Shown: in pieces, positions 38,479 through 55,042 of the stretch
How the letters are laid out: each line of letters begins with the position of its first letter
How positions within the stretch are numbered: position 1 is the first letter of the stretch
Assembly (NCBI RefSeq): GCF_029953265.1
Contig: NZ_JASBAO010000001.1
Coordinates: 2,051,501 to 2,115,500, forward strand
Direction: 5' to 3'
DNA length: 64,000 bases
DNA from: Commensalibacter oyaizuii
GTDB taxonomy: Bacteria; Pseudomonadota; Alphaproteobacteria; Acetobacterales; Acetobacteraceae
The notes under the pieces: generated by a model
What the model was told of the DNA's origin: nothing
Database searches by the model: none
The model's input: only the letters and a program-made list of their open reading frames with translations
Translations under genes and position numbers: made by a program

Positions 38479-39699
38479 ATGTTAAAGGATTCTCAGGTTC
38501 GTTCTGCCAAGAAGAAAAAAGACCCTTATCGATTAACAGATAGCAAGGGTCTATTTCTTCACGTAGCAACCTCTGGTACAAAAACATGGCGCGTTCGTTA
38601 TGTTTTTAATGGCAAAGAGTCACAAATTGTAATTGGCCATTATCCAGATATGTCCTTAGCAGATGCACGAACCGCACTATTAGATGTTAAAAAATCTATT
38701 CGGGAAGGTCGAAACCCTGCTGCAGAGAAATTACTCAAAAAACAATTATTAACGTCACACTACGAGAATACTTTTGAGATTATAGCACGTAAATGGCATG
38801 AAATCAAAAAGCCTTTTTGGACAGCTAAACATGCATTAAATGTTATTCGTAGCCTAGAAAATGATGTTTTTTCTTTTTTGGGTGGGATACCTATTTCAGA
38901 ATTAACGCCTCAAATCGTTTTATCTACTTTGCAGAAAGTAGAAAAAAGAGGTGCAATAGAGACAGCACACCGAATTCGTCAACGCATGAGTGATATATTT
39001 GTTTACGCTATTGCGAGTGGTTTATGTAAGGACAACCCGGCAGCGATCATTGCCCCCGCTTTGTTGCCTGTATCAAAGGGACGGCAACCTGCCATTATTA
39101 AGTTAGATGATGCCATCGATATGTTACAACATGTTGAAGATGTGCCTGCTTTTCCTGTGACCAAGCTTGCAATGCGTTTTTTATTGTTAACAGCTGTACG
39201 TCCTGGTGAATTACGATTTGCACGGTGGGAAGAATTCGAAGGTTTGGAAACAGATAGTCCAATATGGGTTATTCCAGCCTCTCGTATGAAGATGAAGAAA
39301 GAGCATATCGTGCCCTTATGCCCGATGGCGGTTGAGATTATCGAGATTATCAAACAGTTTAGTTGCCATTTAGAATATGTATTTCCAAGTCGACGTCACC
39401 CTACAAAGCCTATGAGCGAGAATGCATTGGGGTATTTGATTAACCGTGCTGGATATTATCAAAGACACGTCCCTCATGGTTTTAGGGCCATGTTTTCAAC
39501 GATTATGAATGAGCATTTCCCACAAGATCGGTTTGTTATTGATTTGGTTTTAGCTCATGCCCCTAAAGATCAGGTAGAGGGGGCATATAATCGCACAACT
39601 CATTTTAATCGACGTAAGGAATTAATGATAGAATGGGAAAAGATCATCACTAAAGATTTGAAACCCGTTCAAGATTTGGCAAAGGTTTTAAAGGATTGA
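38479..39699 (+). CDS. Tyrosine-type prophage integrase (P4 subfamily, DUF4102)
   Basis: A 406-residue site-specific recombinase. The N-terminal arm-binding domain (DUF4102: YRLTDSKGLFLHVATSGTKT, IVIGHYPDMSLADAR) is followed by a core-binding SAM-like domain and a catalytic domain with R241 (TAVRPGELRFARW), H333 and R336 (PHGFR), H360 and the nucleophile Y370 (GAYNR). It sits directly after tRNA-Ser, and its 3' end overlaps a leftward excisionase-like gene by about 50 bases. Confidence 0.93.
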   Translation: MLKDSQVRSAKKKKDPYRLTDSKGLFLHVATSGTKTWRVRYVFNGKESQIVIGHYPDMSLADARTALLDVKKSIREGRNPAAEKLLKKQLLTSHYENTFEIIARKWHEIKKPFWTAKHALNVIRSLENDVFSFLGGIPISELTPQIVLSTLQKVEKRGAIETAHRIRQRMSDIFVYAIASGLCKDNPAAIIAPALLPVSKGRQPAIIKLDDAIDMLQHVEDVPAFPVTKLAMRFLLLTAVRPGELRFARWEEFEGLETDSPIWVIPASRMKMKKEHIVPLCPMAVEIIEIIKQFSCHLEYVFPSRRHPTKPMSENALGYLINRAGYYQRHVPHGFRAMFSTIMNEHFPQDRFVIDLVLAHAPKDQVEGAYNRTTHFNRRKELMIEWEKIITKDLKPVQDLAKVLKD

Positions 39700-42239: not shown

Positions 42240-42989
42240 TTAATGCTGGAGTTTTTTGGCGTCGTCCATAATTTTAAGGCTACATTTTGCTAATGCTTCC
42301 TCGGCTTTCTCAAGTCCTGGTTTAAAAAATATTGCTGCATTCTCTATAGATTTGAATATAGGAAGGTAATAGACTCTTTCTCTGTAAAGGATGTCGCTAC
42401 CAGAGTAAAATGGAATTTCTGCGTCCTTTGGCATATGACCATTTTTTGTTTTGTATGCTTGCAATAAGTCGTTATAAAAAGAAATAAAAGCTAAATCCTC
42501 AAGCATACATTTTTGTAAGAGAGGGCCAGATCGTGTTGAAAAACAATTTAAAACATTTTGTGCAAAGCCATCAAATCCATGCTCGTAACATGTGTTATCT
42601 ATGTCTTGTACAGCCTCATTAATTACAGCTTCTGAAACGGTAGTTGCTTCTGTAGTTGTTGCAGTATTTAGTGTTGTTGTTTTTTTTGAGCGTTGAGAAC
42701 ATTTTTTCCATTCTCTTTCTGCCATTGATTGCTCGTCATTGTCACCGAAACAATAACCTAACTGATTTAATTTTATATCGGCGGCATCTCTGTAATTACA
42801 CATGATTGTTGTTTCAGGATCATTTTCTTTGGTAGAGCTTTGACAAAATTCTTGTGCAGCATAATAGTTTTTAATAAGTTGCTGTGGGCTTTCATAATCA
42901 ACAGCTATTGTCGTGTTGGATTTTTGTTGGGCTTGGGCAGCGGTGGGAACAGATAAAGTAAATGCAGCAATCAATAGCAATTTTTTCAT
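42240..42989 (-). CDS. Prophage-encoded secreted cysteine-rich protein
   Basis: A 249-residue exported protein with a strong signal peptide (LLLIAAFTLSVPTAAQAQ, cut after AQA) and AAGGAG before the ATG. The mature part has eight cysteines in two groups of four separated by a Thr-rich linker (TTTLNTATTTEATT). The first group includes MCNYRDAADIKLNQLGYCF and WKKCSQ. The second (CYEHGFDGFAQNVLNCF, QKCMLED, LAKC) resembles the chromosomal secreted protein at 13911. An accessory gene expressed from the lysogen is likely, as it lies among repressor-side genes and has its own terminator. Confidence 0.6.
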   Translation of the reverse strand: MKKLLLIAAFTLSVPTAAQAQQKSNTTIAVDYESPQQLIKNYYAAQEFCQSSTKENDPETTIMCNYRDAADIKLNQLGYCFGDNDEQSMAEREWKKCSQRSKKTTTLNTATTTEATTVSEAVINEAVQDIDNTCYEHGFDGFAQNVLNCFSTRSGPLLQKCMLEDLAFISFYNDLLQAYKTKNGHMPKDAEIPFYSGSDILYRERVYYLPIFKSIENAAIFFKPGLEKAEEALAKCSLKIMDDAKKLQH

Positions 42990-46348: not shown

Positions 46349-46662
46349 TGCACTATATTACCAACCAGCCTCACAGTATTAAAATACATCCTGCCTTAGT
46401 TATGGGATTTGACGGTGGCAAGTCACAGCCCTTAAGCACAACAACCCAAAGCGTATACACTTATCTGTTGGACAATGCGATCTTTAATGATCAGGGCAAA
46501 AAGACCTCTTCCATCTTCATCACTCATCAACAGCTTGCAGAAAAGCTGCGCTTTCATTTGCTGGTCATTAAGCAGTCTATCGATGAACTGACCCAAGCAG
46601 GCCTCATTCAACACCATCAAGACGGCTATCTAGTTCTTATCAGAAAAGGGGACGTATCATGA
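46348..46662 (+). CDS. Winged-helix replication-associated protein
   Basis: A 104-residue protein: SVYTYLLDNAIFNDQGKKTSSIFITHQQLAEKLRFHLLVIKQSIDELTQAGLIQHHQDGYLVL is a winged helix as found in the N-terminus of phage replication proteins (SIF-xTHQQLA). Its stop overlaps the ATG of the larger replication-like protein by four bases, and the two may function as a split initiator. Inferred from order. Confidence 0.55.
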   Translation: MHYITNQPHSIKIHPALVMGFDGGKSQPLSTTTQSVYTYLLDNAIFNDQGKKTSSIFITHQQLAEKLRFHLLVIKQSIDELTQAGLIQHHQDGYLVLIRKGDVS

Positions 46663-47570
46663 CTCGTATTCCTTCAAATCATCATTGGGTAAAATTTGAA
46701 TTTAAAGACTGGTTAATTGATGGGGCGATACGTTCTTGCGATGCTGCCACGCGAGGTATTTATATGGATTTATTTTGCCTTGCAATGACATCTAAAAAAA
46801 CTGGGGTTCTCGCCCTTAATGATAAGCAAATATGTAAACAACTGGCAATCAAACCTTTACAGTTTGAGCGCGTTATTAAGAATTTAATTGCTGTTAAATT
46901 ATGTAGTCGTGGCAGAGGTAACGAGCTTATTTTAACCCAATTTGTGGACGATATTGATCTAAAAGATGCCGAAATAGTTCCAAATAGAACCGATATGGAA
47001 CCCAATAGGTGCCGAACCGGTAAAGAGAATGTTGAAAATCCGCCAAAAATTGATCCCCCTATAAAAGAAAAGAACAGAAATAGAATAGATCCCCCTTACC
47101 CCCAAACGAAGGACAAAGTTGTTCCCATTCATTCACACCATGAATCGTTTAATCAAATTTTATTGTTGTTGATGGATAGAACCTCCCATTCTGAGCCAGA
47201 GTGCAGGGGGCAAATCGAACAATGGGTACAACAAATCGGCGATCTGCAAACTGTCATCGGTATCGTCAGGGCAGCCAGCAATAAAAATGATCCATTCTCG
47301 TATATTTCCAAATGTGTTGGAAACCATAGGAAAAAGAACGCTTCTCAGCCCACCAAGCAGGACAAAATTACCCCATCATGGGCGTTGTCTAGGGGCAAGC
47401 ATGCTGACGATCCTGAGTTTCAAAGGTTATCGGCAGATAATCAATCCATCGCTTTGCAATTAATCGACGGTAAAACGCCCAAGTGGTTAGTGCGATTCCA
47501 CGAAAATCATAATCCAGCTGCGTATAAATTTTACGAAAAGCACCGTCAAAACCAAGAAAAAGCCGCCTAG
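46659..47570 (+). CDS. Phage replication protein, O/DnaT-like
   Basis: A 303-residue protein. The N-terminal 110 residues (WVKFEFKDWLIDGAIRSCDAATRGIYMDLFCLAM, GVLALNDKQICKQLAI) match phage replication proteins of the DUF1376/YdaU type. A Pro/Lys-rich linker follows, and the C-terminal region has an alpha-helical segment (QILLLLMDRTSHSEPECRGQIEQWV) and a late LSRGKHADDPEF. Replisome loading is inferred from the family and from ssb immediately downstream. Confidence 0.65.
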   Translation: MTRIPSNHHWVKFEFKDWLIDGAIRSCDAATRGIYMDLFCLAMTSKKTGVLALNDKQICKQLAIKPLQFERVIKNLIAVKLCSRGRGNELILTQFVDDIDLKDAEIVPNRTDMEPNRCRTGKENVENPPKIDPPIKEKNRNRIDPPYPQTKDKVVPIHSHHESFNQILLLLMDRTSHSEPECRGQIEQWVQQIGDLQTVIGIVRAASNKNDPFSYISKCVGNHRKKNASQPTKQDKITPSWALSRGKHADDPEFQRLSADNQSIALQLIDGKTPKWLVRFHENHNPAAYKFYEKHRQNQEKAA

Positions 47571-47604
47571 ATAACAGTATTTAAAAAAAAAGTAAGGGGA
47601 TCCA

Positions 47605-47661
47605 ATGTTAAATACCCAAAACAAAAATACCAAACGTGCCTCGTTGGTAAGGAACAGCTAA
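47605..47661 (+). CDS. Possible 18-residue leader peptide before ssb
   Basis: ATG at 47605 preceded by AAGGGG, 18 codons, with its stop overlapping the ssb start (TAATGG). The peptide (MLNTQNKNTKRASLV) is basic and may only couple translation into ssb. Confidence 0.3.
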   Translation: MLNTQNKNTKRASLVRNS

Positions 47662-48110
47662 TGGCAGGCAGTGTAAATAAAGTCATCCTTGTTGGCAATT
47701 TGGGATATAACCCAGAGATCAGAACCCAGCAATCAGGAAGTAAAATTGCCAGTTTGACAATTGCAACCAGTGAACATTGGAAAGATCGTCAAACAGATGA
47801 GTGGCGCGAAAATACCCAATGGCATCGTGTTGTGATCTTTAATGAACGTTTGGTTAATCTGGCCGAGAAACACCTGACCAAAGGCCGTAAAGTCTTCATC
47901 GAAGGGCAACTTAAAACTCGAAAATGGATAGATAGGGAGGGCGTAGAGCGTTACACAACCGAGATTGTTTTAACTGCATTTCGTGGCGAATTGGTGTTGT
48001 TAGACAGTAAGGATCAAAAACAGTCATCAAGAAAAAACCAACAGCAAAGTAATCAAGATGGTTGGGATAGTTCAATGCCAAACGATCTAAATGATGAAAT
48101 ACCATTCTAG
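47661..48110 (+). CDS. ssb: Single-stranded DNA-binding protein
   Basis: A 149-residue OB-fold SSB: MAGSVNKVILVGNLGYNPEIR, NTQWHRVVIFNERLVNLAEKHLTKG, and VFIEGQLKTRKW. The disordered tail ends in the DEIPF acidic tip that contacts replication partners. It belongs to the prophage replication module. The ribosome site and start (GGAACAGCTAATGGCAG) are identical to those of the next gene. Confidence 0.95.
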   Translation: MAGSVNKVILVGNLGYNPEIRTQQSGSKIASLTIATSEHWKDRQTDEWRENTQWHRVVIFNERLVNLAEKHLTKGRKVFIEGQLKTRKWIDREGVERYTTEIVLTAFRGELVLLDSKDQKQSSRKNQQQSNQDGWDSSMPNDLNDEIPF

Positions 48111-48120
48111 GGAACAGCTA

Positions 48121-48633
48121 ATGGCAGTAAAAAGAAAGAAAAAGACAAATCCCGCCGTGTCCAAGTGTGATATTCAACATTTTCGGCGTGAAGAATTTAA
48201 TATTGAAGTGGGTGTTGATCCTGAAAATCCAAAGCAGCACGTTAAACGTCTACGTCGTAAGTGCGTGTATGATGAAATGCTGGCTCGAGGCTCTATCACC
48301 CAAGATCAACGTGACATGGCAGAACGCTATGCAATTATTTGTGAGAAATCATTTGGCGGTAGTGGGGATCTGTATTCAAAAGCTAATTTATTAAGCGATG
48401 GTATCCGTGGATGTTATAATGGTCCAACCTTGGGGCAAAGCATTGCTTATAGTAAACTTTTTAAAATCTGGACGGTGATGGGAAAATACCATCGCACGAT
48501 TTTAAACATGATCGTGTTGGGAAATATGGGCACCAAGGAAATATCAAAAAAATTGCAATTAAACCTGCATTACACAATGGGGCAGGTGCTTTCCACCTTC
48601 ATTTTACTAGAAGAAGCAATGCAGGATCTGTGA
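48121..48633 (+). CDS. Phage protein of unknown function, possible late regulator
   Basis: A 170-residue basic protein. ATG at 48121 follows the same GGAACAGCTA sequence as ssb; an earlier in-frame ATG overlaps ssb. Its C-terminal part (ILNMIVLGNMGTKEISKKLQLNLHYTMGQVLSTFILLEEAM) looks like a sigma-4-type helix-turn-helix, and RRKCVYDEMLARGSITQDQRDMAERY precedes it. As the last gene of the early module it could act in late transcription; inferred. Confidence 0.5.
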   Translation: MAVKRKKKTNPAVSKCDIQHFRREEFNIEVGVDPENPKQHVKRLRRKCVYDEMLARGSITQDQRDMAERYAIICEKSFGGSGDLYSKANLLSDGIRGCYNGPTLGQSIAYSKLFKIWTVMGKYHRTILNMIVLGNMGTKEISKKLQLNLHYTMGQVLSTFILLEEAMQDL

Positions 48634-48926
48634 AATAGGGGCTTGTACTTTTGTCTAAAATGTTTTAATATATGACAAAATGGGTGTTTTATTTTTTTTA
48701 GATAAATTCACTTACGTATATTACCATAATTTTGTTGTATTTTTAATACAATGGAAATAATTAGTAATGATTGCGATTATTACTCTAAATAAATTATTAC
48801 ATTACTACAGCTGGTTAGGTTCTTTTTTGTATTATTAGCATTGGTTACAGTTTTTTTTATCTTGTTCTGAATCTTTTTCATAAATAAGAATTGTATCTAA
48901 ATAGATATTATTAAAAAGGTTAAATT
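48634..48926. promoter_or_regulatory. AT-rich boundary between replication module and repeat gene
   Basis: A 293-base gap, extremely AT-rich, with no open frame. It separates the early operon from the tandem-repeat gene and should carry the latter's promoter; I cannot choose among many TATAAT-like sequences. Confidence 0.4.
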
Positions 48927-50738
48927 ATGTCAGATACAGTTTTATTTGCGCCTAATCAAAATATACACGATCAAGCCGATAAATTGGTTACTGCTCCTGA
49001 AGTCAAAACAAATCAAGATGATCAGCTTCTCAGTGTTTCTCAACAAATTGCAAATGTCAAAACTATAAAAGAATTAACATCCGCAGATGACTGGTATCAA
49101 AAAGATTTGTCTCATATGACAACAAGTCTTATGCAGGCAGAAGTTACACAAGAAAATAAACCCGATATAATGACGTTGCCTGATATTCAAATGGTACAAG
49201 ATAACGGTTTTGTTGGATCTGTTGTGATGCAGGTCCGGGCTCAGCAAGATTTTATATTGTCTCAAAATGGTGTGACCTACATGACAAATATAATGAGTTC
49301 AGTTTTGGGTTATCCCCCAAGTAAACAAATGATTATAGATGAACAAAATAATCTCTATAATAATGGTTGGAGACATATGGGGTTATATAGTGATATCGGG
49401 GCAACAATAAGAGGTGACACTGCGTACTCTCAAGCAGGATACAACGCGATTGATCAACTGACCTCTTCTATGTATGGACGGCCTGTTAATAAAGAGACTA
49501 TTCAGTTCTATCAGGTTAATCTTGCGAATGGATGGTTTCAGAGTCTAGCTGATGTTCGTAATAGTTTTGCATATTCTCAAGCTACATACGATGCGATTCA
49601 CGAGAATATTAGTCGTATTAGAGGTTATGATTTTAACAATGCAGATCGTATTCGTCACGAACAAGATCGTTTAGCTGGTGGTGAAGCGTTTCATGACTTA
49701 ATGGCCAATTATGCGTATGACCAGGAGAGCCATAATCGTATTCGCGAGAGTGTTAGTCGTATCAGGGGATATGACTGGAACGATGAAGGCATGATTAAAC
49801 ACGAACAAGATCGTTTAGCTGGTGGTGAAGCGTTTCATGACTTAATGGCCAATTATGCGTATGACCAGGAGAGCCATAATCGTATTCGCGAGAGTGTTAG
49901 TCGTATCAGGGGATATGACTGGAACGATGAAGGTATGATTAAACACGAACAAGATCGTTTAGCTGGTGGTGAAGCGTTTCATGACTTAATGGCCAATTAT
50001 GCGTATGACCAGGAGAGCCATAATCGTATTCGCGAGAGTGTTAGTCGTATCAGGGGATATGACTGGAACGATGAAGGCATGATTAAACACGAACAAGATC
50101 GTTTAGCTGGTGGTGAAGCGTTTCATGACTTAATGGCCAATTATGCGTATGACCAGGAGAGCCATAATCGTATTCGCGAGAGTGTTAGTCGTATCAGGGG
50201 ATATGACTGGAACGATGAAGGTATGATTAAACACGAACAAGATCGTTTAGCTGGTGGTGAAGCGTTTCATGACTTAATGGCCAATTATGCGTATGACCAG
50301 GAGAGCCATAATCGTATTCGCGAGAGTGTTAGTCGTATCAGGGGATATGACTGGAACGATGAAGGTATGATTAAACACGAACAAGATCGTTTAGCTGGTG
50401 GTGAAGCGTTTCATGACTTAATGGCCAATTATGCGTATGACCAGGAGAGCCATAATCGTATTCGCGAGGGTGTTAGTCGTATCAGGGGATATGACTGGAA
50501 CGATGAAGGCATGATTAAACACGAACAAGATCGTTTAGCTGGTGGTGAAGCGTTTCATGACTTAATGGCCAATTATGCGTATGACCAGGAGAGCTATGAT
50601 CGTATTCGCTCCATGAGCAATGAAATATTAGGGTATACTCTAGATGATGCAACAATTAGTCGTCAACAGGATGCTTTGGCTCAGGGATATTCGATGCAAC
50701 AAGTTAGAGAAAGATTGGTGCAGTCAAATCCATTTTAA
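48927..50738 (+). CDS. Tandem-repeat protein with 48-residue units, DUF4214-like layout
   Basis: A 603-residue protein without signal peptide or membrane span. Residues 1-110 are unique and polar. From about 112 onward, units of 45-50 residues recur; the first three are divergent (TSSMYGRPVNKETIQFYQ, ISRIRGYDFNNADRIRHEQ), then six are almost identical (SRIRGYDWNDEGMIKHEQDR, LAGGEAFHDLMANYAYDQES), and a divergent cap ends the protein. The pattern of a short GR/GY motif, LxxG and A-Y/S-Q/S repeats resembles DUF4214 units, but the assignment is tentative. It stands alone between replication and packaging genes, the usual place for accessory cargo. Confidence 0.75.
   Translation: MSDTVLFAPNQNIHDQADKLVTAPEVKTNQDDQLLSVSQQIANVKTIKELTSADDWYQKDLSHMTTSLMQAEVTQENKPDIMTLPDIQMVQDNGFVGSVVMQVRAQQDFILSQNGVTYMTNIMSSVLGYPPSKQMIIDEQNNLYNNGWRHMGLYSDIGATIRGDTAYSQAGYNAIDQLTSSMYGRPVNKETIQFYQVNLANGWFQSLADVRNSFAYSQATYDAIHENISRIRGYDFNNADRIRHEQDRLAGGEAFHDLMANYAYDQESHNRIRESVSRIRGYDWNDEGMIKHEQDRLAGGEAFHDLMANYAYDQESHNRIRESVSRIRGYDWNDEGMIKHEQDRLAGGEAFHDLMANYAYDQESHNRIRESVSRIRGYDWNDEGMIKHEQDRLAGGEAFHDLMANYAYDQESHNRIRESVSRIRGYDWNDEGMIKHEQDRLAGGEAFHDLMANYAYDQESHNRIRESVSRIRGYDWNDEGMIKHEQDRLAGGEAFHDLMANYAYDQESHNRIREGVSRIRGYDWNDEGMIKHEQDRLAGGEAFHDLMANYAYDQESYDRIRSMSNEILGYTLDDATISRQQDALAQGYSMQQVRERLVQSNPF
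49730..50593 (+). repeat. Six near-identical 144-bp tandem repeats
   Basis: Six in-frame units at a period of exactly 144 bases, starting around 49730, 49874, 50018, 50162, 50306 and 50450. Differences are minimal: a glycine codon after GATGAA alternates GGC, GGT, GGC, GGT, GGT, GGC, and the last unit has GAGGGT for GAGAGT. Divergent versions flank the block. Confidence 0.93.
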
Positions 50739-50787
50739 TAAGTAATTCCCTTGGGTCCTTCCTAGCCCCTTTGCAGCGCGGGTAATT

Positions 50788-51023
50788 CGCGATCGCGTTT
50801 TATGTCTAGCCAAAGGGTTTTGTAGAGGTTGCAGTTGCACCTAGTAAAATTGCTGTAGCCCTAGAGTTTCTTCGACTAAATAGGGTGCAACCTAGGTTGC
50901 AGTTTACTTTTATATAAATACTTTTAAAAACAGCAGAATATAGCCATTAATTGAATATATGGAGGGTGCAACCAAGCTGCAACTGGTTGCACCTTTATTA
51001 TTGGAGGTTGCAGTTAGGTTGCA
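50788..51023 (+). other. Candidate packaging site (cos/pac) with multiple GGTTGCA boxes
   Basis: A non-coding stretch directly before terS. It has a perfect palindrome CGCGATCGCG (50788-50797) and at least seven GGTTGCA or GGTGCAACC boxes at 50827, 50884, 50895, 50965, 50985, 51006 and 51017. Two of them form a 10-bp inverted repeat (50965-50974 and 50984-50993), and the last two are direct repeats 11 bp apart. This is the arrangement expected for terminase binding sites next to a cut site. Confidence 0.6.
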
Positions 51024-51028
51024 GAATC

Positions 51029-51586
51029 ATGAAAACGATTAGTCAAAGTGAGGCTGCACGTCGTGCAGGGATCAGTCGCGCGGCTATTCAAAAACATTTA
51101 AAAGTAGGACGGATTCAATCTGTAGGTAAAAATAAAGTTGATCTTGCATCTTTTGATGCTTGGCTTGCGAGTAAACGAGACTTTGATCAAACTGTTGCGT
51201 TACCACAAACAGAGATAATTCCATATGATCCATCTTTACCCGTTTTTAAGAACCTTCAAGATGCAGAACTTTATAAAACCAGTTACGAAGCTCGTCTCAA
51301 ACAATTAGACTATGATTTAAAATCGGGTGCTGTAGTCAGGATTGAAGATGTAGTTGATGCCCTATCTTCACAACTTAGTGCGATCAGAACGCGTTTATTG
51401 GCAATGCCTGCGGAAATGGCACCTCAGATATTTAACTGTAAAACGGTTGCAGAAACTCAAGGTAAAATGCATCAATTGATGGTCAGAGCATTAGAAGAAT
51501 TATCCGAGGATGAACGATGGATCCAACACTTACAAGAAAGGGAAAATAGCCTTTTTGAAGACATTACAGAAAGCACAACGGCTTAA
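51029..51586 (+). CDS. Terminase small subunit, Nu1-like
   Basis: A 185-residue DNA-packaging protein. I use ATG at 51029; a longer frame would run through the GGTTGCA boxes. The N-terminus is a winged helix like that of lambda gpNu1 (MKTISQSEAARRAGISRAAI, QKHLKVGRI), and the remainder has helical dimer and TerL-contact segments (VEDVVDALSSQLSAIRTRLL). It should recognise the boxes immediately upstream. It overlaps terL by about 77 bases. Confidence 0.83.
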   Translation: MKTISQSEAARRAGISRAAIQKHLKVGRIQSVGKNKVDLASFDAWLASKRDFDQTVALPQTEIIPYDPSLPVFKNLQDAELYKTSYEARLKQLDYDLKSGAVVRIEDVVDALSSQLSAIRTRLLAMPAEMAPQIFNCKTVAETQGKMHQLMVRALEELSEDERWIQHLQERENSLFEDITESTTA

Positions 51587-53483
51587 TCTTTCCCCGCCTC
51601 CTGTATTAAGTCTTAGTCAATGGGCGGAACGTTATGCGTATTTGTCCAAAGAAACCAGCGCGCAAACAGGACGGTTTGAGGCCTATGCCTATCAAGTTGG
51701 CATGATGGATGCGATCACTGATCCCAAGGTAGAAAAAGTATCGGTGATGAAGTCAGCCCGCGTGGGGTATACCAAAATCCTTGACCATATTGTTGGCTAT
51801 TATATGCACCAAGATCCAAGTCCAATTTTAGTGGTGCAACCACGCGTAGAAGATGCCGAGGATTATTCAAAATCTGAGATTGCTCCGATGCTGAGAGATA
51901 CGACGGTATTAGCTGAAATTGCGCCCGATCCCAAAACACGATCAGGGGAAAATACATTACTGAAAAAGACCATGAAGAATGGCGCATCCATTGCCTTGGT
52001 GGGGGCAAACTCTCCTGGGGGATTTCGTCGTATTACCGTGCGCATCGTTCTTTTTGATGAAGTTGATGGATATCCTGTGGGCGGTGCTGGTTCAGAAGGG
52101 GATCAAATTGCTCTTGGCACCAAACGCTCTGAAACTTTTTGGAACCGCAAGATTGTGGCTGGATCAACGCCAACAATCAAAGGCTTGTCTCGTATTGAAA
52201 AGCTTTATCAAGAGGGGGATCAACGCAAATTTTACGTGCCATGCCCCCATTGTGGGGAATTTCAAATCCTTGAATGGGGTGGCAAAGACGTAACCCACGG
52301 GATTAAGTGGGATAAGGACGAACGAGGTAATGCCTTGCCTGATACAGCTCATTATGTATGTCAGCATAATGGGTGTGTCATAGAAGAAAAAGATAAACCA
52401 GACTTGATCAAAGAGGGTGAATGGCGTGCTAATGCTCCGTTTAAAGGGCATGCGTCCTTTCATATTAATTCGCTTTATTCATTAATGCCCAATGCCAGAT
52501 GGTCTTTGTTGGTTGCAGAATTTTTGCGCGTAAAGTCTGACCCGATTGAATTGCAAACATTTGTGAATACAATGCTTGGGGAAACATTTGAAGATCGAGG
52601 CGAGGGTGCATTATCCGAACTGACTCTCGCAAGACGTGCCGAAGTTTGGGCGGGCGAGGTTCCCGATGGCGTGGTTTTATTAACTGCCGCAGGGGATACT
52701 CAAGACGATCGGGTTGAACTGGAAATCGTGGGTTGGGGAAGAAACGAAGAACGCTGGTCCATTGCCCATATTGTTATTGATGGGGATCCAGACGGCCCTG
52801 CCTTGTGGCAAGAGGTTGATACTATTTTAAAACGTCAGTGGTATCGCGCAGATGGTCATGCGTTCTCTGTCATGGCGACATGTATTGATTCAGGCGGACA
52901 CCACACTCAGAAAGTTTATGAATTTTGCAAAGCAAGACTAGGACGCAGGATTTGGGCAATTAAAGGTGAATCTGCACGAGGTGGACAACGTTCACCCGTC
53001 TGGCCTGCCAAACGACCAACCCGCAAATCAAAAGGGTTCAGACCTTATATTATTGGGGTCAACACTGCCAAAGACACCATCCGTGCACGCTTGGCCCTAG
53101 AACAGCCACCCCCTAATACTGCGTGCCCTGGGTATATGCATTACCCACAAGACCGCGATGTCAATTTCTTTGCCCAATTGGTTTCTGAACGTTCGGTCAG
53201 AACCTATATTGGCGGTCGATATGTCCGTATTTGGGAACAAACTCCAGGACGTGCAAACGAGGCTTTAGATTTGGCGGTCTACTCTTACGCAGCCCTTTGT
53301 GGCTTAATGCAACAAGGTGTAAAATTAAACGCTCTGGCCGATCGCATGGAACAAAATCATGAGCCACTAAAAATGGTGGAACAAAAGGTAGAAGTTTCAG
53401 GTTTACCTAAAGAAGATAGAGAACAGGTGGATACTACGGATCCTGAAAAAAAACGACGAGCGTTTAAAAAACTGTTTTTATAA
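51510..53483 (+). CDS. Terminase large subunit, lambda GpA family
   Basis: A 657-residue packaging motor. ATPase features are the Walker A-like loop SARVGYTK (82-89) and Walker B with catalytic Glu FDEVDGYP (DEVD 183-186). Cys-rich YVPCPHCGEFQ and CQHNGC form a zinc-finger-like pair as in GpA proteins. The nuclease half has TAAGDTQDDRVELEIVGWG and MATCIDSGGHHT. The start is uncertain, since the overlap with terS is long; TTG near 51558 is an alternative. Confidence 0.92.
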   Translation: MNDGSNTYKKGKIAFLKTLQKAQRLNLSPPPVLSLSQWAERYAYLSKETSAQTGRFEAYAYQVGMMDAITDPKVEKVSVMKSARVGYTKILDHIVGYYMHQDPSPILVVQPRVEDAEDYSKSEIAPMLRDTTVLAEIAPDPKTRSGENTLLKKTMKNGASIALVGANSPGGFRRITVRIVLFDEVDGYPVGGAGSEGDQIALGTKRSETFWNRKIVAGSTPTIKGLSRIEKLYQEGDQRKFYVPCPHCGEFQILEWGGKDVTHGIKWDKDERGNALPDTAHYVCQHNGCVIEEKDKPDLIKEGEWRANAPFKGHASFHINSLYSLMPNARWSLLVAEFLRVKSDPIELQTFVNTMLGETFEDRGEGALSELTLARRAEVWAGEVPDGVVLLTAAGDTQDDRVELEIVGWGRNEERWSIAHIVIDGDPDGPALWQEVDTILKRQWYRADGHAFSVMATCIDSGGHHTQKVYEFCKARLGRRIWAIKGESARGGQRSPVWPAKRPTRKSKGFRPYIIGVNTAKDTIRARLALEQPPPNTACPGYMHYPQDRDVNFFAQLVSERSVRTYIGGRYVRIWEQTPGRANEALDLAVYSYAALCGLMQQGVKLNALADRMEQNHEPLKMVEQKVEVSGLPKEDREQVDTTDPEKKRRAFKKLFL

Positions 53484-53545
53484 TTGTGACGCAGATTCAG
53501 ATTTTTAAGCAATTCAATAAGATCTTTTACAATTTATTTTCTTGC

Positions 53546-53791
53546 TTAAGTTTTAGGATCTTTAGGCAAAGCATTAAGATCTTTTAACTGATACAACATA
53601 TTGATAACGACAGGAATATAAGGATTGATGGGTAATTTATTCGCAATCATTTTTTGAAGTAGACTAAGGCTTCCCCTTTGTGTCCTTGGGTCTCCATAGC
53701 TTTTCAAGATGCGAATAAAGGAGCTTTGAGTATATCCCAAATCACATATTGCTTGTTTAAGATCGTCACCTGTTTCAATCTTGCATTCCAT
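53546..53791 (-). CDS. Small helix-turn-helix protein, reverse-strand moron
   Basis: An 81-residue protein on the strand opposite to the structural genes. DDLKQAICDLGYTQSSFIRILKSYGDPRTQRGSLSLLQKMIANKLPI resembles a Cro-like DNA-binding domain. Its own regulation and reversed orientation mark it as a moron inserted between terL and the head genes. A multi-hairpin non-coding stretch adjoins its start. Confidence 0.6.
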   Translation of the reverse strand: MECKIETGDDLKQAICDLGYTQSSFIRILKSYGDPRTQRGSLSLLQKMIANKLPINPYIPVVINMLYQLKDLNALPKDPKT

Positions 53792-53822
53792 AATAAAAAC
53801 CTCTATATTATAAGGAGAGAGC

Positions 53823-54087
53823 GGGAGAGGTTTTATCCCCTCCCTTTCTTACTACCTTCGGCTTAATTCAATTTGAATATTCATCTTGAATTTTCCGCAA
53901 ACAACTGAAAGGATCGGTTTCAGTTGTTTGATTGTAAGTAGAAAGAAATAAATGGAATAGACATCCATTTGTTCTCTCCTTAGTTTGTTGAAGTATGATT
54001 GCTTCAACACATATATCTATACATCATCATGATGTAATTTTCAAGATATCAAGTGCAATTTTCGTAATGAAATTTGCACTTTTTTTA
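53823..54087 (+). ncRNA. Candidate structured RNA with serial hairpins and terminator
   Basis: Non-coding stretch with successive inverted repeats: 53823-53844 (8 bp, one mismatch), 53865-53892 (7 bp), 53898-53930 (13 bp perfect, CAAACAACTGAAA), 53950-53970 (7 bp), 53987-54008 (7 bp, GTTGAAG), and finally 54051-54081 (AAGTGCAA) followed by seven T, a proper terminator. Such density of perfect stems suggests a small RNA. No promoter was identified, so it could also derive from terL read-through. Confidence 0.5.
54051..54087 (+). terminator. Rho-independent terminator ahead of the head gene
   Basis: AAGTGCAA (54051-54058) pairs with TTGCACTT (54074-54081) and is followed by T to 54087. It lies 15 bases before the next start codon. 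Confidence 0.65.
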
Positions 54088-54102
54088 TGTAATCGTTTCT
54101 TC

Positions 54103-54777
54103 ATGAAAACCACGCTAAAATTTAATTCCAAACAAGCCTCATTGGATCTGCAGCGTATTGCGTCCAAAGATATTCCTTATGCATCGGCACAAGGGTTAAA
54201 TGGGGTGGCAAAGGCTGCGCGCGATCGAATCAAGCAAGATATTCCTAATATTTTTCATCACACCAATGCTTTTACTCGTAACGCTGTATCTTTTGGTCCA
54301 GCAACGAAATATGACCAAACGGCCACTGTATTTATCAAAGACCAACAAGCCAAATATTTACAATTTGAAGAATATGGTGGCACGCGGACAACCAGCGATA
54401 ATATTGTGAACCCCAATGCCAAAGCTTTAGTGATTGCAGGGCCTAAGGCTAAAAAAAATGCATCAGGTGGACTTCCAAAGGGTTATGTAAAAAGCCTTGC
54501 TCAAAAAGCCCAGCAAGATTTACAACGCGCTAAGACAGCAGGACGCAGAGGCAAAGCCCAATCAATCCTTAAAATAACAGGAAAGAACGGCAAGCCTGGC
54601 GGGTTCTTTTTATATAATCGCCAACAACGCAGCCTGACCCGATTGGTCAGCTTTGTCAGCAAAGCCAGTTATAAACCTAAAATGGGTTTTCATCAAAAAG
54701 TTGAACAATTCATCAATAAGAACGCTAACCATTATTTAACTCAAGCTATTGATCGTATTTTAACCAAAGGAAAATAA
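54103..54777 (+). CDS. Phage structural protein, unassigned (between terL and gpW)
   Basis: A 224-residue basic protein. ATG at 54103 avoids the preceding terminator. It contains NGVAKAARDRIKQDIPNIFHHTNAFTRNAVSFGPA and QFEEYGGTRTT, which recall HK97 gp10-like or minor tail proteins that bind at connector interfaces, then a Lys/Arg-rich C-terminal half. The location just before gpW is unusual for gp10-like proteins. No ribosome site is strong. Confidence 0.55.
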   Translation: MKTTLKFNSKQASLDLQRIASKDIPYASAQGLNGVAKAARDRIKQDIPNIFHHTNAFTRNAVSFGPATKYDQTATVFIKDQQAKYLQFEEYGGTRTTSDNIVNPNAKALVIAGPKAKKNASGGLPKGYVKSLAQKAQQDLQRAKTAGRRGKAQSILKITGKNGKPGGFFLYNRQQRSLTRLVSFVSKASYKPKMGFHQKVEQFINKNANHYLTQAIDRILTKGK

Positions 54778-54781
54778 GACC

Positions 54782-55042
54782 ATGCTTTATCTAGCACCGA
54801 AAACCATGTGGTCTAATTTATCACGCGAAACCTTGCAATCGTATCTCAGTCAAGCGCAACAAGCTTATAATAATTTAATGCTTGGAAATAAACCAATTTC
54901 AGTCTCTTATTCCCAAGAAACAGGGGCAAAGTCAGTCACCTACACTCAAGCCAATATGCAGCTATTACAAGGCTATATTCTCGATTTACAACGAGCATTA
55001 GGGATTAACCGCAGACGTGCCATTGGGGTAAGATTCAGATGA
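54782..55042 (+). CDS. Head-tail joining protein, gpW-like
   Basis: An 86-residue protein with the gpW shape: two helices (LQSYLSQAQQAYNNLMLGNKP and MQLLQGYILDLQRALGI) around a beta-hairpin (SVSYSQETGAKSVTYT), ending in a basic tail (NRRRAIGVRFR). In lambda gpW plugs the portal after packaging. It lies directly before the portal gene and overlaps it by four bases (ATGA). Confidence 0.85.
   Translation: MLYLAPKTMWSNLSRETLQSYLSQAQQAYNNLMLGNKPISVSYSQETGAKSVTYTQANMQLLQGYILDLQRALGINRRRAIGVRFR

What the first reader, a model, noticed from the sequence alone, without database searches (positions are those of the whole stretch)
48927..50738. Prophage accessory protein built of near-identical 48-residue tandem repeats
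Six 144-bp units are nearly identical at DNA level, flanked by divergent units of the same shape, in a stand-alone gene between replication and packaging modules. Recent homogenisation, absence of export signal or membrane span, and a unique N-terminus of about 110 residues suggest a variable-length cargo protein, possibly a binding or scaffold protein of the lysogen. The DUF4214-like spacing is a weak family hint. The silent GGC/GGT alternation suggests that units 1-2 duplicated as a pair into 3-4.
Basis: partly seen in the sequence, partly recalled or inferred. Interest (0 to 1): 0.75.

Follow-up and report, generated by a model that had tools for sequence, protein, structure and literature searches.

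The report
Prophage cargo protein of helical repeats
A virus lying dormant in the genome of an insect-gut bacterium carries, in an optional slot beside its DNA-packaging region, a gene for a long protein built mostly from one helical block copied almost identically six times, a distant relative of repeats that cousins of this bacterium put in front of toxin domains; what this one does is not known.

Summary
In detail: window 48927-50738 (+) is one open frame of 603 codons; six full 144-bp units at 49656-50519 differ pairwise by 0-2 bases, with diverged units on both sides.

The host is a Commensalibacter. The gene lies between a phage ORF without Pfam match and a conserved, cos-like region plus terminase. 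In five related prophages this slot holds the repeat gene (2), a Sel1-repeat ORF (1) or no listed ORF of 70 aa (2): an optional cargo site.

The units are remote relatives of DUF4214. Pfam's model misses them, but a profile of units from relatives that pass its cut-off finds the protein at E 1.3e-29; the best of 50 shuffles gives 0.32. Fold matches are weak but point the same way.

In 3 of 7 scanned proteins of other Acetobacteraceae a known toxin domain is present, once with CdiI alongside. The window protein has no toxin domain, and its N-terminus is not shared with them. Most likely it is a toxin-less, length-variable helical rod carried as lysogen cargo. Function is not shown.

The parts
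48927..50738 (+). repeat gene, 603 aa
   Evidence: open frame
48927..49268 (+). N-terminal part, residues 1-114, no repeats; contains a DWYQKDLSH-type stretch
   Evidence: conserved with two C. papalotli genes; not with toxin-bearing relatives beyond shuffles
49269..49586 (+). irregular 57-residue unit and a 49-residue diverged unit
   Evidence: sequence; unit alignment for the second
49587..50594 (+). seven 48-residue units (residues 221-556)
49656..50594 (+). homogenised tract, six and a half 144-bp copies
   Evidence: TRF extends it to 50609
50595..50735 (+). last, diverged unit; the protein ends with it, no further domain
50753..51028 (+). cos-like region: GGGTCCTTCC...GGTAATTCGC core and GGTTGCA repeats
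   Evidence: core aligned in five prophages; 7 GGTTGCA words here; cos function is inferred
48091..48633 (+). 180-aa phage ORF on the upstream side of the slot
   Evidence: no Pfam match at E 0.01; similar ORF in the other four prophages
51029..51586 (+). small-terminase-like ORF with helix-turn-helix
   Evidence: HTH_17 E 0.0011, below its cut-off
51510..53483 (+). large terminase GpA
   Evidence: GpA_nuclease 3e-85, GpA_ATPase 1.7e-77

Best explanation
The gene is optional cargo (a moron) at the end of the phage genome next to the cos-like region of a sheath-bearing Commensalibacter prophage. It encodes a protein with a Commensalibacter-specific N-terminal part followed by about ten three-helix units remotely related to DUF4214 / phycobilisome linkers, six of them kept near-identical by recent unequal recombination or gene conversion. 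Shown: anatomy, slot variation, repeat homology. Inferred: the units stack into an acidic rod whose length follows the copy number; the rod is made by the lysogen and acts outside the cell or at its surface, as I suppose the repeat part of related toxin proteins does, but without a toxin tip, for instance as an adhesin, binder or blocker. Step estimates of mine: cargo slot 0.85; DUF4214-related fold 0.9; length-variable rod 0.6; exported or surface-acting 0.35.
For: Slot: repeat gene in 2, Sel1 ORF in 1, no listed ORF of 70 aa in 2 of 5 prophages that share the terminase. Cargo diverges faster than carrier: terminase 91% identical over the aligned 583 residues between window and C. papalotli, cargo 29% over residues 1-255. 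Repeat kin: profile of 10 units from three genomes, E 1.3e-29 against 0.32 for the best of 50 shuffles and 0.98 reversed; profile-profile probability 96.3 against at most 12.4 in 100 column shuffles. Fold: three helices a unit, pLDDT 86.5; 11 of 29 PDB rows are phycobilisome chains; best viral row is a phage DUF4214 protein. Relatives with toxin domains.
Against: Pfam's DUF4214 model does not match. No fold match reaches E 0.001, TM-scores to the PDB are about 0.3, and four of the five models of that run have pLDDT 42-53. No promoter-like site on the + strand between 48600 and the start codon, and counts of promoter- and terminator-like sites do not exceed shuffles. G+C of the gene (0.408) is close to the window (0.389). 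No export signal was seen, no secretion gene lies beside it, and no data on expression, location or copy-number variation exist here.
Confidence: 0.5

Rival explanations
1. It is what remains of a polymorphic toxin: the repeat carrier is kept, the toxin-immunity tip was lost or is exchanged through recombination at the array.
For: Related repeats precede a pesticin-type domain (L016), and CDI endonuclease-like domains (L023, followed by CdiI; L028). Both Commensalibacter genomes with the gene have a chromosomal homologue, one broken by stops and one in two frames.
Against: No toxin domain and no ORF of 60 aa lies wholly between 50739 and 51028; the frame itself is intact and freshly homogenised; the N-terminus is not shared with the toxin carriers; no toxin-bearing version was found in the 9 Commensalibacter genomes (listing).
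Confidence: 0.15
2. It is a virion protein (fibre, decoration or injected protein) of this phage.
For: Phage proteins named DUF4214 are among the fold matches (5 of 50 rows shown, one of them from a giant virus).
Against: It lies outside the head and tail gene block, is missing from two of five prophages and replaced in one, and has no match in 50,697 phage records.
Confidence: 0.12
3. It acts inside the lysogen, for example as a scaffold or phage-exclusion protein.
For: No export signal or membrane span was seen; the position fits a lysogen gene.
Against: No direct evidence either way; PADLOC was not searched.
Confidence: 0.2
4. The copy number, or the identity of the six units, is made by the assembler.
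For: A 954-bp tract of near-identical units is beyond short reads; C. papalotli contigs end in the homologous gene.
Against: The window lies in a 2.34-Mb contig, single-unit variants are placed in the array, and diverged units plus homologues in relatives show that an array of this kind is real.
Confidence: 0.1

Closest known systems
DUF4214 (Pfam PF13946), in fold near phycobilisome linker polypeptides
   Same: 48-residue units align over their length with units of proteins that pass Pfam's cut-off; helical units with weak fold matches to phycobilisome linkers
   Different: Pfam's model gives no match to the window protein; six near-identical units; prophage cargo
DUF4214-repeat toxin proteins of Acetobacteraceae, e.g. 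Neokomagataea tanensis plasmid NZ_CP032486.1 (L023)
   Same: the repeat kind
   Different: no C-terminal toxin domain, no immunity gene, another N-terminus
Morons of temperate phages, such as lambda bor near the right end (recalled, from no call)
   Same: stand-alone gene near the packaging end, present in some related prophages only
   Different: no sequence relation claimed; expression in the lysogen not shown

Membership tests
DUF4214 (PF13946) | score above Pfam's curated cut-off | tested here: not met
   no match of the protein or its pieces up to E 10; in the own genome one match, below cut-off, elsewhere
DUF4214 (PF13946) | homology of the units to units of proteins above the cut-off | tested here: met
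   E 1.3e-29 against 0.32 for the best of 50 shuffles; best single unit 1.3e-07 (database of 55 sequences); hhalign probability 96.3 against at most 12.4
DUF4214 (PF13946) | phycobilisome-linker-like helical fold | tested here: inconclusive
   no match at E 0.001; 11 of 29 PDB rows are phycobilisome chains, the first seven among them, TM about 0.3; one of five models confident
polymorphic / CDI toxin | C-terminal toxin domain | tested here: not met
   the protein ends with a repeat unit; no Pfam or NCBIfam toxin match with a stretch of its own
polymorphic / CDI toxin | immunity gene next to it | tested here: not met
   next ORF of 60 aa or more is the terminase-region ORF
polymorphic / CDI toxin | N-terminus shared with toxin-bearing relatives | tested here: not met
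   best relative E 0.34, best shuffle 0.22
prophage moron | extra gene absent from or replaced in related prophages | tested here: met
   2 with it, 1 with Sel1 ORF, 2 without a listed ORF of 70 aa, of 5
prophage moron | own promoter and terminator | tested here: inconclusive
   counts not above shuffles; no + strand promoter-like site upstream
prophage moron | base composition unlike its surroundings | tested here: not met
   G+C 0.408 against 0.389
prophage moron | expressed in the lysogen | not testable with these tools
   no transcript data at hand

The most novel reading that the evidence does not exclude
Commensalibacter phages pick up the repeat carriers of a DUF4214-type weapon family from host chromosomes and spread them as toxin-less, length-variable rods; the homogenised array serves as landing zone for exchange with chromosomal copies, and the naked rod binds or blocks the same surface target as the armed versions.
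Probability: 0.1. Interest if true: 0.65.

Novelty: new member of a known kind. Interest (0 to 1): 0.4.

Why it matters
It ties an unexplained repeat gene to a repeat kind that some Acetobacteraceae put in front of antibacterial-type toxin domains, and places it in a defined, exchangeable slot beside the packaging region of insect-symbiont phages. The slot gives a simple way to look for further cargo of these phages, and the array a simple length marker between strains. In the open-licence PMC library held, 4 papers mention DUF4214; none holds DUF4214 together with 'CDI toxin' and 'CdiI', and none holds 'polymorphic toxin' together with 'phycobilisome linker' or 'Acetobacteraceae'. Papers outside that library were not searched.

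Tried and rejected
Window protein against phage and plasmid records (tblastn) and 46659-55042 against phage records (megablast): no match. Scans of genome contigs and viral contigs with the full protein: pattern matches, no confirmed relative; with the N-terminal alignment two loci, both C. papalotli, and nothing viral. Library hits of the full protein taken as repeat artefacts: 18 PHROG families (best E 2.2e-11), Pfam DUF6708 and HTH_71 (both above their whole-protein cut-offs), NCBIfam cyan_ocin_like (E 2.5e-14, above cut-off); each shows 0 stretches that pass on their own, and on a two-unit piece DUF6708 and HTH_71 fall below their cut-offs. A T6SS route: the own genome has TssC, but of the 9 genomes with family members only it and G103 gave a match, so it was rejected as a general route. 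A shared N-terminal motif that I thought I saw by eye between the window protein and the G016 proteins (note) did not survive the shuffle control. The full-length structure model is too poor to use. Not done: PADLOC search, signal-peptide prediction, scan of L027 against Pfam, the partial terminase match of G004 on C15 (L037).

Full report
What is there. One frame, 48927-50738 on the + strand, 603 codons. One tandem array, period 144, 6.6 copies, 99% matches, 0% indels, at 49656-50609. The six full units differ pairwise by 0-2 of 144 bases: one silent C/T and one A/G. At the same offset the 144 bases before the array differ at 73 positions, those after it at 36. In protein terms: 114 residues without repeats, an irregular 57-residue unit, a 49-residue unit, then 48-residue units to the end. 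No membrane span, no cysteine, computed pI 4.9.

Where it is. The window lies in a 2.34-Mb contig of a 2.41-Mb genome. A genome of the same genus (G007) has contigs of the same lengths as two records of Commensalibacter papalotli MX01, so the host is a Commensalibacter, a genus of acetic acid bacteria in insect guts (PMC10149009: start of abstract in a listing, and passages). Around the gene is a prophage: integrase 38479-39699 starting 155 bp after a tRNA-Ser, single-strand binding protein, GpA terminase, lambda-family portal, S49 peptidase and tail sheath.

The slot. The window's terminase matches at E below 1e-50 in 5 of the 9 genomes of the genus, its own included; G004 has a second, partial match with a stop (L037), which I did not read. 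I looked at the region between the 180-aa-type ORF and the small-terminase-like ORF in all five. The window and C. papalotli have the repeat gene. G005 has a 398-aa ORF on the opposite strand with eight Sel1 stretches (E 9.9e-86), whose start looks by eye like a signal peptide. In G004 and G006 the script listed no ORF of 70 aa or more there. In C. papalotli the gene is split over two contig ends that share 83 identical bases; that they are one gene is inferred from the shared end and the neighbours. All five keep a GGGTCCTTCC word, followed by a GGTAATTCGC-like word (one base changed in G006), 211-309 bp before the small-terminase-like ORF as I delimited it. I read this as the cos region; that is inference. 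The cargo is far more diverged than its carrier: terminase 91% identical over 583 aligned residues between window and C. papalotli, cargo 29% over residues 1-255.

What the units are. Pfam's DUF4214 model gives no match to the window protein or its pieces and none over its cut-off in the own genome. tblastn finds relatives at E 1e-4 in 9 of 397 Acetobacteraceae genomes searched, own and C. papalotli included. Of the seven proteins from other genera that I scanned, five pass the DUF4214 cut-off: L015 (E 3.5e-10), L023 (2.8e-20), L024 (2.7e-12), L025 (4e-20), L026 (3.7e-21). L016 is below it (0.027) and L028 gave none. L027 was not scanned. A profile of 10 units from L023, L025 and L026 finds the window protein at E 1.3e-29 in a set of 55 sequences; the best of 50 shuffles gives 0.32, the reversed protein 0.98. 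The best single unit gives 1.3e-07, so much of the total is the sum over near-identical units. Profile against profile gives probability 96.3, at most 12.4 in 100 column shuffles. The 10 units are those that a simple end-of-unit pattern caught, without the three of L015; a second profile with these gives E 3.3e-34, reversed 0.2.

Fold. The full-length model is poor (mean pLDDT 44.9). A model of residues 165-316 reaches 86.5, pTM 0.76, with three helices a unit; the other four models of that run are at 42-53. Foldseek against the PDB gives nothing at E 0.001; of 29 rows 11 are phycobilisome chains, the first seven among them, with TM about 0.3. Against viral models nothing reaches 0.001; the best row is a DUF4214 protein of an uncultured tailed phage (E 0.012), and 5 of the 50 rows shown bear that name. 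This agrees with the sequence result and is weak alone.

What such repeats do in relatives. L023 matches a plasmid of Neokomagataea tanensis (NZ_CP032486.1) at 100%, annotated there as a DUF4214 protein next to a contact-dependent inhibition immunity protein. Its 1047-aa protein has a CDI endonuclease-like domain near the end (E 1.7e-10), and the next ORF matches CdiI (2.5e-11). L016 has a pesticin-type domain (7e-19), L028 a CDI endonuclease-like domain (2.6e-21). In L015, L024, L025 and L026 no toxin domain was recognised. So 3 of 7 scanned proteins have one. The window protein has none and no immunity ORF, and its N-terminal profile scores against these relatives no better than against shuffles (best relative 0.34, best shuffle 0.22). 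It is therefore not a polymorphic toxin; it shares the repeat module. In the papers held, DUF4214 appears as a likely surface-anchoring domain in segmented filamentous bacteria (PMC12780176, one passage) and in a protein cluster correlated with a T6SS in Serratia (PMC12165300, one passage). T6SS does not explain this family: among the nine genomes with members, TssC was found in the own genome and G103 only. [quoted passage not shown]

Origin. The own genome and C. papalotli also carry a chromosomal homologue between a TonB-receptor-like gene and an NAD-binding-type gene next to ribosomal protein genes (my reading of the ORF lists): in the own genome broken by stops, in C. papalotli in two frames that overlap just after a nine-C tract, which could be phase variation or a sequencing error. 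The C. papalotli prophage N-terminus is 57% identical to its chromosomal one over 81 residues, and the chromosomal one 38% to the window's over 73. The prophage copies may have been taken from, or converted by, host copies separately. The own chromosomal copy (36%, 54% and 41% in three tblastn pieces) is too degraded for a firm comparison.

Verdict. Beyond that I propose a toxin-less helical rod of variable length acting at or outside the lysogen's surface; that last step is inference at about 0.35. It is a new member of known kinds (phage moron, DUF4214-related repeat protein) in an unusual combination.

Noticed in passing
window 50753-51028 and 51029-51586; L014, L040, L041, L042: Repeated words in the cos-like region differ between prophages and go with the small-terminase HTH: GGTTGCA (7) in the window and GGGTGCA (6) in G004, both with IQK in the HTH; GGTTCCA in G005 (8), G006 (5) and G007 (5), all with [MIL]RK. 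Five prophages, relatedness not controlled; G007's large terminase is nearest the window's, so the pair may move as a unit.
   Followed up: partly
window 42240-42989 (-); L040 14624-15493, L041 16847-17629: ORF with a signal-peptide-like start beside the repressor-like ORF, no Pfam match for the window copy; similar ORFs at the same place in G004 and G005. Perhaps a second cargo gene.
   Followed up: no
L041 9088-10284 (+): A 398-aa Sel1-repeat ORF fills the same slot in the G005 prophage, on the opposite strand; another Sel1-like ORF lies near the degraded chromosomal copy of the own genome (L011 10611-11639, by eye).
   Followed up: partly
L013 7500-7508 (-); G007 C8:28054-28070: Nine-C tract where two frames of the C. 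papalotli chromosomal copy meet, and a 17-C tract on the prophage contig; tracts of at least nine C number 9 in G007 and 9 in G000 by my count. Possible phase-variable sites.
   Followed up: partly
G000:C2:28569-29471 (L038, L043): A T6SS sheath gene (TssC) on a 42-kb contig of the own genome; among other genomes of the genus searched, only G002 has one.
   Followed up: no
L025 6360-6737 (-), L026 5893-6270 (-): A similar 125-aa ORF follows the DUF4214 protein in two genomes of one genus; no Pfam match for the L026 copy. Candidate immunity protein for an unrecognised C-terminal domain.
   Followed up: no
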